Shown here: piece after piece, positions 6,305-37,600 of the stretch
Layout of the letters: each line of letters opens with the position of its first letter
Numbering within the stretch: position 1 is the first letter of the stretch
DNA from: a virus
DNA: 64,000 nucleotides
Reading direction: 5' to 3' (one strand)
IMG/VR virus record: IMGVR_UViG_3300020221_000005
Location: 1 to 64,000 of that record
Made by a program: the position numbers and the translations under genes
The notes under the pieces: model-generated
Databases searched by the model: none
Seen by the model: the letters and a program-made list of their open reading frames with translations, nothing else
What the model was told of the DNA's origin: nothing

Positions 6305-6381
6305 GCGAGCCTGGTGATACATGGGGAGCACATCGGTCGTCCAGATCGAAGGGGAAGGTTTAAATCCTTCGGCTCGCTCCA
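6305..6381 (+). tRNA. tRNA-Gly(TCC)-like, unusual anticodon loop
   Basis: Full cloverleaf: acceptor GCGAGCC/GGCTCGC (7 bp), D stem GTG/CAC, anticodon stem TCGGT/ATCGA, T stem GAAGG/CCTTC, encoded CCA. The 7-nt anticodon loop is CGTCCAG, giving TCC at positions 34-36 but G instead of the near-universal T at position 33; the first and last loop bases could also pair. The T loop TTTAAAT also departs from TTCRANY. The fold is secure, the decoding is not. Confidence 0.7.
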
Positions 6382-16484: not shown

Positions 16485-16519
16485 CATTAAACCCATGAAC
16501 AAGTCTATGGGTCAAGTCG

Positions 16520-16717
16520 ATGAAAAGCTTAACTGATAAAATTTATTGGGAAGTCTATGAGCAAGTCGATGATCAAGTCGATGATCAAGTCTGGGATCAA
16601 GTCGGTAATCAAGTTGGTAGACAAATCTGGGATCAAGTCGGTAGTCAAATCTGGAATCACGTCGGTAGGCAAGTCTGGAATCAAGTCTGGAATAAAGTCG
16701 ATGAAAAGCTTAACTGA
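16520..16717 (+). CDS. QV-repeat protein 1
   Basis: 65 residues. After MKSLTDKIYWEVYE comes a tetrapeptide pattern xQV(D/W/G)x: DDQV, WDQV, GNQV, GRQI, WDQV, GSQI. It ends VDEKLN. Its last bases contain the start of the next copy (17-nt overlap). The pattern resembles the internal QV repeats of bacterial DUF6745 proteins. Confidence 0.55.
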   Translation: MKSLTDKIYWEVYEQVDDQVDDQVWDQVGNQVGRQIWDQVGSQIWNHVGRQVWNQVWNKVDEKLN

Positions 16718-16898
16718 TAAAATTTATTGGGAAGTCTATGAGCAAGTCGATGATCAAGTCTGGGATCAAGTCGGTAATCAAGTTGGTAGACAAATCTGGG
16801 ATCAAGCCGGTAGTCAAGTTAGTAGACAAATCTGGGATCAAATCGGTAGTCAAGTCGGTAGACAAATCTGGGATCAAGTCGATGAAAAGCTTAACTGA
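16701..16898 (+). CDS. QV-repeat protein 2
   Basis: 65 residues, same head MKSLTDKIYWEV and tail VDEKLN as copy 1, middle repeats WDQV, GNQV, GRQI, WDQA, GSQV. A longer in-frame start at 16557 would read copy 1 out of frame and is rejected. Stop overlaps the start of copy 3 by 17 nt. Confidence 0.55.
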   Translation: MKSLTDKIYWEVYEQVDDQVWDQVGNQVGRQIWDQAGSQVSRQIWDQIGSQVGRQIWDQVDEKLN

Positions 16899-17091
16899 TA
16901 AAATTTATTGGGAAGTCGATGATCAAGTCTGGGATCAGGTCGGTAGTCAAGTCGGTAGTCAAATCTGGGATCAAGTCGGTAGTCAAGTTGGTAGGCAAGT
17001 CTGGGATCAAGTCTGGGATCAAGTCGGTAGTCAAGTCCGGAATCAAGTTTATGGAATCAATTCGGGATTGATTCAGTTAGTTGACAATTAG
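16882..17091 (+). CDS. QV-repeat protein 3
   Basis: 69 residues. Head MKSLTDKIYWEV, then DDQVWDQVGSQVGSQIW and further repeats, but a different tail (YGINSGLIQLVDN). Last of three tandem ORFs joined by overlapping stop/start. Confidence 0.55.
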   Translation: MKSLTDKIYWEVDDQVWDQVGSQVGSQIWDQVGSQVGRQVWDQVWDQVGSQVRNQVYGINSGLIQLVDN

Positions 17092-17127
17092 GATTTTGTC
17101 ATATATATTAATGGTGTTTGGAATAAT

Positions 17128-17221
17128 GCTGTCGTGACCGGAATTGGATGAACGGCTCAGGTTTCTACCCTGAATGAGATAATATCAAACGTTGCAGGTT
17201 CGAATCCTGCCGACAGTACCA
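17128..17221 (+). tRNA. tRNA-Arg(TCT), class II body
   Basis: 94 nt with encoded CCA. Acceptor GCTGTCG/CGACAGT, D stem CCG/CGG, anticodon stem TCAGG/CCTGA with loop TTTCTAC (TCT at 17164-17166), T arm GCAGG TTCGAAT CCTGC, discriminator A. The variable region is about 20 nt (17174-17193), a class II length normally reserved for Leu, Ser and Tyr. Confidence 0.8.
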
Positions 17222-17378
17222 CAAAATGTGAGACCTTCTCAAACGCGAGAGGTTTTAAATACAAGGCAGGGTTTATTAATTAAATTCAAATAAGTTATGG
17301 AAATAATTCATGTTTAATTTGTTTAAATACGATTGACTATAATTAGATAAATCATATATTAATACAAATTTATTTTAA

Positions 17379-17453
17379 GTCCGGATAGTTTAATTGGTTT
17401 AAAACAGTTCGTTTTCAGCGAGCAAGATGTGGGTTCGACTCCCATTCCGGATG
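17379..17453 (+). tRNA. tRNA-Glu(TTC)
   Basis: 75 nt, no encoded CCA. Acceptor GTCCGGA/TCCGGAT, D stem GTTT/AAAC, anticodon stem GTTCG/CGAGC with loop TTTTCAG (TTC 17414-17416), T loop TTCGACT, discriminator G. Confidence 0.9.
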
Positions 17454-17484
17454 CTAATATTTAAATTTAAAACAAAGATCAAAC

Positions 17485-17664
17485 ATGAAAAATTATGCAA
17501 TTTATTTAAAAAAAATTAGAGTGGGATACCTTAAAGCAAAAAATTTGACGAACGCAAATAAAAAAGCTTTTAAAAAGTGGTCAACGCTGGTTAAGATAAC
17601 ACCTAAAGACATAAAAGTGGTTTATGTTAAAGAAATAACTTCTCCACTTATAAGGTTTAATTAG
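17485..17664 (+). CDS. Small basic protein, YIVYLNG family copy 2
   Basis: 59 residues, MKNYAIYLKKIRVGYLKAKN and onward, Lys-rich, paralogue of 11725-11922. It lies between two tRNA genes and its TAG stop shares one base with the first base of the tRNA at 17664. Confidence 0.6.
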   Translation: MKNYAIYLKKIRVGYLKAKNLTNANKKAFKKWSTLVKITPKDIKVVYVKEITSPLIRFN

Positions 17665-17757
17665 GTTCCATGATGTAATGGTAACATGACAGACTTATAA
17701 TCTGTATATGCTCTAGATTGGAGCGCTATCTCGGTTCGAGTCCGGGTGGAACCACCA
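17664..17757 (+). tRNA. tRNA with TAT anticodon (Ile), class II body
   Basis: 94 nt with CCA. Acceptor GGTTCCA/TGGAACC, D stem ATG/CAT, anticodon stem ACAGA/TCTGT with loop CTTATAA (TAT 17696-17698, reads AUA), long variable arm with stem GCTC/GAGC, T arm CTCGG TTCGAGT CCGGG, discriminator A. Canonical tRNA-Ile is class I, so identity by anticodon and by body disagree. Confidence 0.8.
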
Positions 17758-17875
17758 TTTGTTAAGAAATAGTTGAGATTCCAACCATACATATATATTA
17801 AACTCCATCAGTTAGTCAACCAAATATATTTTTTTCTCTACCACGTAGAGAGGCGGTACCACCAGAGAAATTAAA

Positions 17876-17951
17876 TGGTGGCTAAGATGGGATTCGAACC
17901 CATACTACATTCATTTTAAGTGAATTGACTCTGCCGTTGGTCTACTTAGCC
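17876..17951 (-). tRNA. tRNA-Leu(TAA), class I body
   Basis: 76 nt on the minus strand with CCA. Acceptor GGCTAAG/CTTAGCC, D stem GAC/GTC, anticodon stem ATTCA/TGAAT with loop CTTAAAA (TAA, complement of 17916-17918), variable loop of only about 5 nt, T arm ATGGG TTCGAAT CCCAT, discriminator A. Bacterial tRNA-Leu normally has a long variable arm. Confidence 0.85.
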
Positions 17952-21513: not shown

Positions 21514-21590
21514 GGGCCCATAGCTCAATTGGTTAGAGCAAAGAACTCATAATTCTTGGGTTGTCGGTTCAAGTCCGGCTGGGCCCACCA
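21514..21590 (+). tRNA. tRNA-Met(CAT), elongator or Ile2
   Basis: 77 nt with CCA. Acceptor GGGCCCA/TGGGCCC fully paired (so not an initiator), anticodon stem AAGAA/TTCTT with loop CTCATAA (CAT 21548-21550). If the C is modified to lysidine it would read AUA as Ile. Confidence 0.9.
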
Positions 21591-37224: not shown

Positions 37225-37600
37225 GGGGATGTAATGGTTTCGACAATAGTTAGAGAGAGTATTTGGCACGTCGGGGATGATAGTTGGCCTCGTAAAGAAT
37301 CTATCAAGAAGATAAACGCTAAAAACGTAATCGCATATGACTTCATTCCTGTTGAGGAAGAAGTTCTTGTTGTGGCTTAATTATAAGTCACCCATAATTA
37401 GGATGATGCACAATAGTTTTAATTATGACATTATTGTGATTGGCATTAAAAAGTGATTTAAGTTAATGTTGAAATATAAATCTTAAGATAAACAACTTTT
37501 GAGTTTTAGAATTGTTTTTACGAAAATATTAAAAACTATAAGCGTGTAGTCAGGTAATTTGTATAATTATTGGACTCGGGTTCAACTCCCGACATCTCCA
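37225..37600 (+). ncRNA. ssrA: tmRNA (ssrA)
   Basis: 5' GGGGATG and 3' CATCTCC pair as the acceptor stem; GTTTCGACA follows the 5' end as in tmRNAs, and the T arm is ACTCGGGTTCAACTCCCGA. No encoded CCA. The tag reading frame 37318-37380 begins with GCT and reads AKNVIAYDFIPVEEEVLVVA then TAA. About 376 nt, normal for one-piece tmRNA. It would rescue stalled ribosomes and tag products. The LVVA ending differs from the usual LAA. Confidence 0.92.

What the first reader, a model, noticed from the sequence alone, without database searches (positions are those of the whole stretch)
17128..17951. tRNA bodies and anticodons are mismatched
Two tRNAs with class II long variable arms carry TCT (Arg) and TAT (Ile) anticodons, while the tRNA with a TAA (Leu) anticodon has a class I short variable loop. 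All three have discriminator A. Bacterial LeuRS reads A73 and the class II shape, not the anticodon, so the first two could be charged with Leu, changing AGA or AUA meaning; or they are evolved but faithful. Arg and Ile on class II, beside Leu on class I, is very unusual.
Basis: partly seen in the sequence, partly recalled or inferred. Interest (0 to 1): 0.75.

Follow-up and report, generated by a model that had tools for sequence, protein, structure and literature searches.

The report
Phage tRNAs with swapped variable arms
A bacterial virus carries arginine and isoleucine tRNAs with an extra hairpin arm and a leucine tRNA without its usual arm; such swaps recur in many phages, the genetic code in this phage still looks standard, and the isoleucine type has a conserved hairpin loop that I could not find described.

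Summary
In a 103-kb T4-like phage contig, tRNA-Arg(UCU) and tRNA-Ile(UAU) have 20- and 24-nt variable regions, tRNA-Leu(UAA) has a 5-nt one, and all three have A73-CCA. Recoding is not supported: in aligned homologues AGA columns behave as Arg, AUA as Ile and UUA as Leu, in each case far ahead of Ser or Leu (or Ile). "Mismatched" is also not quite right. (1) The class I tRNA-Leu belongs to a common phage type (28 of 66 Leu tRNAs in a sample not chosen for them) that keeps the leucine set A73, A15-U48 and a Leu-type D-loop. (2) The Arg tRNA keeps A20-C35-U36-A73, and its closest relatives are Arg tRNAs with and without the arm. (3) The Ile(UAU) tRNA belongs to a phage family of at least 90 distinct sequences, rare in bacterial genomes, whose arm is a 4-bp covarying hairpin with a conserved YAGAUNR loop. 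This family mostly lacks the leucine determinants, but its bodies resemble Leu tRNAs, so which synthetase charges it is unproven. Best reading: in phages, variable-arm length is uncoupled from isotype and decoding stays faithful. Why is unknown; escape from tRNA-cutting defences is a plausible driver. Novel part: the class II Ile(UAU) family.

The parts
17128..17221 (+). tRNA-Arg(UCU), 94 nt, anticodon 17164-17166, variable region 17174-17193 (20 nt), D-loop GGA (A20), A73-CCA
17081..17109 (+). sigma-70-like promoter TTGACA-17-TATATT about 20 nt upstream of tRNA-Arg; consensus match only, not above the number expected by chance in the region
   Evidence: the class II Arg homologue in L364 has TTGACT..TATTAT and the same 'ataatgctgtcgtg' start
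17235..17252 (+). terminator-like hairpin with T run just after tRNA-Arg; consensus match only
17379..17454 (+). tRNA-Glu(UUC), ordinary class I, no encoded CCA
17664..17757 (+). tRNA-Ile(UAU), 94 nt, anticodon 17696-17698, variable region 17706-17729, A73-CCA
17710..17724 (+). variable-arm hairpin GCTC-TAGATTG-GAGC, followed by a 5-nt linker (17725-17729); loop matches family consensus YAGAUNR
17876..17951 (-). tRNA-Leu(UAA), 76 nt, class I; anticodon 17918-17916, variable loop 17908-17904 (GTAGT), Leu-type D-arm (3 bp, A14, A15, A20a), U48, A73-CCA
21514..21590 (+). tRNA with CAU anticodon, read here as Ile2-like by eye (C4-G69, C5-G68, TTCAAGTCC T-arm); if so, a second AUA reader in the same phage
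   Evidence: identity as Ile2 rather than Met is an inference

Best explanation
These are working phage tRNAs in which the size of the variable region no longer marks the isotype. Shown here: all three recur in other phages, they keep identity nucleotides other than the arm, and the codons they read carry their standard meanings in this phage. Inferred: (a) LeuRS charges the armless tRNA-Leu through A73, A15-U48 and its Leu-type D-loop; (b) ArgRS charges the long-armed tRNA-Arg through A20, C35, U36 and A73; (c) IleRS charges the armed tRNA-Ile(UAU) through its anticodon loop (A35 U36 A37 A38) and A73. The phage is AT-rich (34% GC) and uses UUA, AUA and AGA heavily (36, 31 and 15 per thousand), so the tRNAs plausibly supply those codons. 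A UAU anticodon would read AUA without lysidine, which the host must otherwise add to C34. The likely reason the arms could change is escape from host nucleases or other factors that read the variable region. That step is a hypothesis, by analogy with PtuAB cutting tRNA-Tyr in its variable loop. The conserved loop of the Ile arm implies a binding partner or a specific fold that I could not identify.
For: Class I Leu: 28 of 66 phage Leu tRNAs in loci drawn by Arg patterns and 63 of 127 in loci drawn by the Ile pattern; also in cultured phages LP65, Semele, S13, P-SSM7 and S-SRM01. A15-U48 in 92% of class I and 100% of class II Leu; both mostly have D-loops of 8-11 nt. The nearest other type to class I Leu is class II Leu for 34 of 92, against about 5% of the pool, which suggests loss of the arm. 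Window Leu: nearest neighbours are class I Leu(UAA). Arg: A20 in 9 of 10 class II Arg; the closest body is class II Arg in L364, whose own closest body is the class I Arg of L112. Class II versions of Asn, Cys, Gln and Trp mostly keep the N73 of their class I namesakes. Codon test. The review gives Leu and Arg determinants that agree (PMC9976931). T5 tRNA-Tyr resists PtuAB because of its distinctive variable loop (PMC13096335). S-SRM01 has the same pair as the window, class II Ile(UAU) and class I Leu(UAA).
Against: No charging, expression or proteomic data. The codon test shows what selection has kept, not what each tRNA delivers: a tRNA that misreads weakly or is rarely charged would not show. 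Bodies of class II Ile(UAU) are closest to Leu tRNAs (34 of 99), not to Ile tRNAs, and the window copy itself keeps A15-U48. From general knowledge, U34 is not an ordinary substrate state for bacterial IleRS, and the paper on this (Taniguchi 2013) was not held. The defence-escape step has no direct evidence for these isotypes. The three tRNAs need not share one cause.
Confidence: 0.68

Rival explanations
1. The class II tRNA-Ile(UAU) is a leucine tRNA that changed one anticodon base (UAA to UAU) and is charged by LeuRS, so AUA is read partly as Leu during infection while the host or the phage Ile2-like tRNA supplies Ile.
For: Window body: 8 of the 20 nearest are class II Leu(UAA); 34 of 99 family members are nearest to Leu bodies. 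The window copy has A73, A14, A15-U48 and G18G19. The nematode nev-tRNA-Ile(UAU), also armed, takes only Leu in vitro (PMC4300185).
Against: Across the family A15-U48 falls to 32% and the D-loop to mostly 4-8 nt, lacking the A20a that the review lists as essential. AUA columns fit Ile better than Leu by 98 log units here and by 27 in ENFP1, which has the armed tRNA. Even in nematodes no mistranslation was detected.
Confidence: 0.16
2. Some of these RNAs, above all class II Ile(UAU), do not work in translation but as decoys or ligands, for example for a host tRNA nuclease or another RNA-binding factor, with the YAGAUNR loop as the bait.
For: The loop is conserved far more than other variable arms (AGAT in 51 of 62 distinct arms, 4 of 229 in Leu/Ser/Tyr arms). 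The phage may already have an Ile2-like AUA reader. Allo-tRNA(UAU), a different 8/4 class, could not be used for translation in E. coli (PMC7609411).
Against: The cloverleaf, anticodon loop, T-arm and ACCA end are kept, although the search pattern itself required part of this. AUA is common in the phage (31 per thousand). No conserved partner gene within 3 kb.
Confidence: 0.12
3. The Ile hairpin is a small insert removed after transcription, leaving an ordinary class I tRNA with a 5-nt variable loop.
For: In the window the hairpin is followed by exactly 5 nt before the T-stem, the length of a class I loop, and the 3' distance is nearly constant in the family (11-12 nt after AGAT) while the 5' side varies.
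Against: No splice signal or splicing enzyme identified; I know of no such intron at this position in bacterial tRNAs; a strictly conserved loop on a freely covarying stem is more typical of a binding element.
Confidence: 0.05
4. AGA is read as Ser or Leu through the long-armed Arg(UCU) tRNA.
For: Long variable region; D-loop end ATGAA resembles the Ser type by eye.
Against: A73 not G73; A20, C35 and U36 kept; AGA fits Arg over Ser by 193 log units; close Arg relatives with and without the arm.
Confidence: 0.02

Closest known systems
Nematode nev-tRNA-Ile(UAU) and nev-tRNA-Gly(CCC) (PMC4300185)
   Same: UAU anticodon on a tRNA with an extra variable arm; standard code kept in the proteome
   Different: Eukaryotic; arm resembles that of tRNA-Leu and the tRNAs take only Leu in vitro. 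The phage arm has its own conserved loop and a long 3' linker, and most family members lack the leucine D-arm set.
Allo-tRNAs, including allo-tRNA(UAU) (PMC7609411)
   Same: Long variable arm with non-Ser/Leu/Tyr anticodons, UAU among the commonest
   Different: Allo-tRNAs have 8/4 or 9/3 acceptor branches; the three tRNAs here have 7/5.
Animal mitochondrial tRNA-Leu without a long arm (PMC9976931)
   Same: Leucine tRNA with a short variable loop recognised through A73 and A14
   Different: Mitochondrial LeuRS; here the partner would be a bacterial LeuRS.
T5 and T6 phage tRNA-Tyr versus retron-Eco7 / Septu PtuAB (PMC11555353, PMC13096335)
   Same: Phage tRNA whose variable loop matters for survival against a nuclease
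   Different: Same class as the host tRNA; the changes here are gain or loss of the whole arm, and no nuclease is known for them.
Shigella phage Sf14 tRNAs with isotype-model inconsistency (PMC12482277)
   Same: About half of the phage tRNAs score best for another isotype; significance unknown
   Different: No mention of variable arms or loops in the main text; no class switch described there.
Mycoplasma mobile tRNA-Ile(UAU) (Taniguchi 2013, cited in PMC11938285; text not held)
   Same: AUA read by a UAU anticodon without lysidine
   Different: From general knowledge, a class I tRNA with an adapted IleRS in a cellular genome.

Membership tests
Bacterial-type tRNA-Leu | A73, A15-U48, G18G19, A20a | tested here: met
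   Window Leu has all four by sequence; 92% of class I phage Leu have A15-U48; list of determinants from PMC9976931
Bacterial-type tRNA-Leu | long variable arm (class II) | tested here: not met
   5-nt loop; the review says arm sequence and folding did not correlate with leucylation, so this is class membership, not identity
tRNA-Arg (AGA) | A20, C35, U36, A/G73 | tested here: met
   Sequence of 17128-17221; A20 in 9 of 10 class II Arg
tRNA-Arg (AGA) | class I variable loop of 4-5 nt | tested here: not met
   20 nt; about 10 other distinct phage examples
tRNA-Ile(UAU), AUA reader | UAU anticodon with A37 A38, A73 | tested here: met
   Sequence
tRNA-Ile(UAU), AUA reader | charged by IleRS | not testable with these tools
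   Needs aminoacylation assay
tRNA-Ile(UAU), AUA reader | AUA means Ile in the phage | tested here: met
Phage class II tRNA-Ile(UAU) (this report) | variable hairpin of 4 covarying pairs, loop YAGAUNR, about 5-nt 3' linker | tested here: met
   17710-17729 GCTC-TAGATTG-GAGC-GCTAT
Allo-tRNA | 8/4 or 9/3 acceptor branch | tested here: not met
   All three are 7/5
tRNA-Ser | G73 and class II arm | tested here: not met
   All three have A73; Ser class II in the sample is mostly G73 (82 of 107)
nev-tRNA (Leu-charged UAU) | charged with Leu | not testable with these tools
   Needs aminoacylation assay

The most novel reading that the evidence does not exclude
Phages share a tRNA architecture of their own: a UAU tRNA carrying a variable-arm hairpin with a conserved YAGAUNR loop and a shrunken D-loop, which reads AUA as Ile without lysidine and in which the loop is a recognition element for a synthetase, modification enzyme, ribosomal or defence factor not yet known. 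Alongside it, phages routinely run leucine tRNAs with no long arm.
Probability: 0.35. Interest if true: 0.8.

Novelty: new variant of a known kind. Interest (0 to 1): 0.58.

Why it matters
Textbook bacterial tRNAs have the long arm only in Leu, Ser and Tyr (and Sec). Phages appear to break that rule in both directions and often. That makes two questions directly testable: whether bacterial LeuRS needs the arm at all in vivo, and what reads the conserved loop of the class II Ile(UAU) tRNA. It also warns against calling recoding or misannotation from arm size alone, and it bears on how phage tRNAs survive host tRNA-cutting defences.

Tried and rejected
Recoding of AGA, AUA or UUA: rejected as the main reading by the codon likelihood test. 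Rfam match of the Ile hairpin to another RNA family: none convincing. A partner gene near class II Ile(UAU): none found; clusters seen were short spurious frames, a GIY-YIG-like frame and other unidentified proteins. Close relatives of the phage: megablast found none; rIIA gave no relative in viral contigs; the helicase gave two at 35% identity with only a CAU tRNA. BLAST of the window Ile and Arg tRNAs against cultured phages was uninformative; other family members found S-SRM01 and Lactobacillus phages instead. A genome-collection scan with a motif pattern gave mostly chance hits; only four loci were real class II Ile(UAU). Allo-tRNA and intron readings were considered and ranked low. Literature searches found no description of either phage type, but only openly licensed papers were searchable.

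Full report
WHAT IS THERE. The window is the first 64 kb of a 103,351-base IMG/VR virus record of 34% GC. It encodes T4-like terminase, portal and major head proteins, with nearest cultured relatives Microcystis phage Mel-JY01 and Flavobacterium phage immuto, 52% and 48% identical in the terminase. ARAGORN finds eight tRNAs and a tmRNA in the window, and none in the rest of the record. The three tRNAs of the finding are real by ARAGORN and Rfam. The Arg(UCU) variable region is 20 nt with a weak arm, the Ile(UAU) one is 24 nt with a firm 4-bp hairpin, and the Leu(UAA) one is 5 nt. All three have A73 and an encoded CCA.

DO THE CODONS KEEP THEIR MEANING? I aligned the phage's proteins with homologues in Mel-JY01 and immuto. 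I left out homologue positions coded AGA, AGG, AUA or UUA, and asked which amino acid's substitution profile best explains each codon's columns. AGA (173 columns) fits Arg best, with Lys worse by 58, Ser by 193 and Leu by 225 log units. AUA (356) fits Ile, with Val worse by 41 and Leu by 98. UUA (428) fits Leu, with Ile worse by 161 (raw counts). The same test on Lactobacillus phages gives AUA = Ile in ENFP1, which has the armed Ile(UAU) tRNA, and UUA, UUG and CUA = Leu in LP65, which has three armless Leu tRNAs. Selection therefore treats the code as standard. The test cannot see low-level misreading.

THE LEU TRNA. In viral contigs fetched by an Ile(UAU) pattern, 63 of 127 Leu tRNAs have a variable loop of 5-6 nt. 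In contigs fetched by Arg patterns the figure is 28 of 66. They also occur in cultured phages LP65, Semele, S13, P-SSM7 and S-SRM01, and a BLAST search with the window Leu tRNA hit 32 phage records. They keep A15-U48 (92%, against 100% in class II Leu) and mostly the same D-loop size. Their nearest non-class-I-Leu relatives are class II Leu tRNAs far more often than chance (34 of 92 against about 5% of the pool), with near-identical acceptor and T-arms in the best pairs. This looks like loss of the arm from ordinary Leu tRNAs. According to the identity review, A73, A15-U48, G18G19 and A20a matter for the E. coli enzyme, the arm's sequence and folding did not correlate with leucylation, and human mitochondrial LeuRS charges an armless tRNA-Leu (PMC9976931). 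The window copy has all four determinants.

THE ARG TRNA. It keeps A20 (G18 G19 A20), C35, U36 and A73, the arginine set of the same review. With the anticodon masked and the variable region removed, its closest body among 1,800 phage tRNAs is the class II Arg(UCU) of L364. The class I Arg(UCU) of L112 has a similar acceptor and ranks fourth, and L112 is the closest non-class-II body to L364. L364 shares the same 'ataatgctgtcgtg' start behind a promoter-like sequence. Class II Arg(UCU) tRNAs turn up in several other contigs, and A20 is present in 9 of the 10 distinct class II Arg sequences of any anticodon. Their arms share no motif. I read this as a true Arg tRNA that gained a longer variable region. 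Body matching has limits: nearest-neighbour isotype assignment was right for 163 of 220 test tRNAs.

THE ILE TRNA. AGAT occurs in 51 of 62 distinct variable regions (GAT in 59), against 4 of 229 in Leu, Ser and Tyr arms and 8% of shuffled arms. In 49 non-redundant copies (chosen for having NGAT) the four stem pairs are standard in 100, 100, 96 and 76% of copies, with several pair types, against 67, 41, 65 and 53% in shuffles. The seven-nt loop is Y-AGAU-N-R and the distance to the T-stem is almost constant. The window copy, GCTC-TAGATTG-GAGC-GCTAT, fits exactly. The pattern capped the variable region at 24 nt, so longer members would have been missed. The type is rare in bacteria: 3 genuine-looking hits in 396 genomes of one phylum, and only the seed genome in 398 of another; of four found by a collection scan, three lie in tRNA arrays. 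Cultured carriers are S-SRM01, ENFP1 and Semele, with 3-521 suggested by partial BLAST similarity to an annotated tRNA-Ile.

WHO CHARGES IT? For IleRS: anticodon loop, A73 and codon meaning. For LeuRS: bodies of the family lie closer to Leu than to Ile tRNAs, and the window copy has A73, A14 and A15-U48. Against LeuRS: across the family A15-U48 is kept in only 32%, and D-loops are mostly 4-8 nt, too short for the A20a arrangement. Nematode nev-tRNA-Ile(UAU) is the warning example: it takes only Leu in vitro, yet no mistranslation was detected in the proteome (PMC4300185). I put Leu charging at about one in six.

WHY? General plasticity is clear: class II versions of Asn, Cys, Gln, Lys, Thr and others occur in the same contigs. 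The discriminator base matches that of class I namesakes for Asn (9 of 11), Cys (4 of 4), Gln (3 of 3) and Trp (2 of 2), and less clearly elsewhere. One known pressure on variable regions is PtuAB, which cuts tRNA-Tyr there, and T5 tRNA-Tyr resists because its variable loop differs (PMC13096335; see also PMC11555353). Whether anything similar acts on Leu, Ile or Arg is unknown. No conserved gene lies within 3 kb of the class II Ile(UAU) tRNAs.

PRIOR WORK. The Sf14 study found about half of a phage's tRNAs inconsistent with isotype models and left it unexplained (PMC12482277). Allo-tRNA(UAU) is a different, 8/4 architecture (PMC7609411). In nine literature searches over openly licensed papers I found no description of armless phage Leu tRNAs or of the class II Ile(UAU) family. 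That is a limited search.

VERDICT. Observation confirmed; recoding not supported; the structural oddity is real, recurrent and, for Ile(UAU), a defined family with a conserved element of unknown function.

Noticed in passing
window 37225-37600 +: Phage-encoded tmRNA with an unusual 20-residue tag, AKNVIAYDFIPVEEEVLVVA (RF00023, E 1.6e-47).
   Followed up: no
window 16512-17048: Degenerate tandem repeats (periods 12, 24, 36 and about 181 bases) in open frames just upstream of the tRNA-Arg gene.
   Followed up: partly
window 21514-21590 +: CAU tRNA that looks like tRNA-Ile2 rather than Met, so the phage may carry two AUA readers.
   Followed up: partly
window 6305-6381 +: tRNA-Gly(TCC) called by ARAGORN but not by Rfam at its cut-off; possibly degenerate.
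   Followed up: no
L265 6944-7033 and 7605-7677 (Synechococcus phage S-SRM01): Class II tRNA-Ile(UAU) and class I tRNA-Leu(UAA), the same pair as in the window, not annotated in the record.
   Followed up: yes
L266 4124-4210 (Prochlorococcus phage P-SSM7): tRNA-Asn(GUU) with a long variable arm; class II Asn, Cys, Gln, Lys, Thr and Glu tRNAs also occur in viral contigs.
   Followed up: partly
L148, L186, L208: Class II tRNA-Ile(UAU) on bacterial contigs with 14-21 tRNAs in the fetched stretch, perhaps mobile elements or prophages.
   Followed up: no
L112: Viral contig with 28 ARAGORN tRNAs, including several with odd D-arms and one four-base anticodon call (gtag); carries the closest relatives of the window Ile and Leu tRNAs.
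   Followed up: partly
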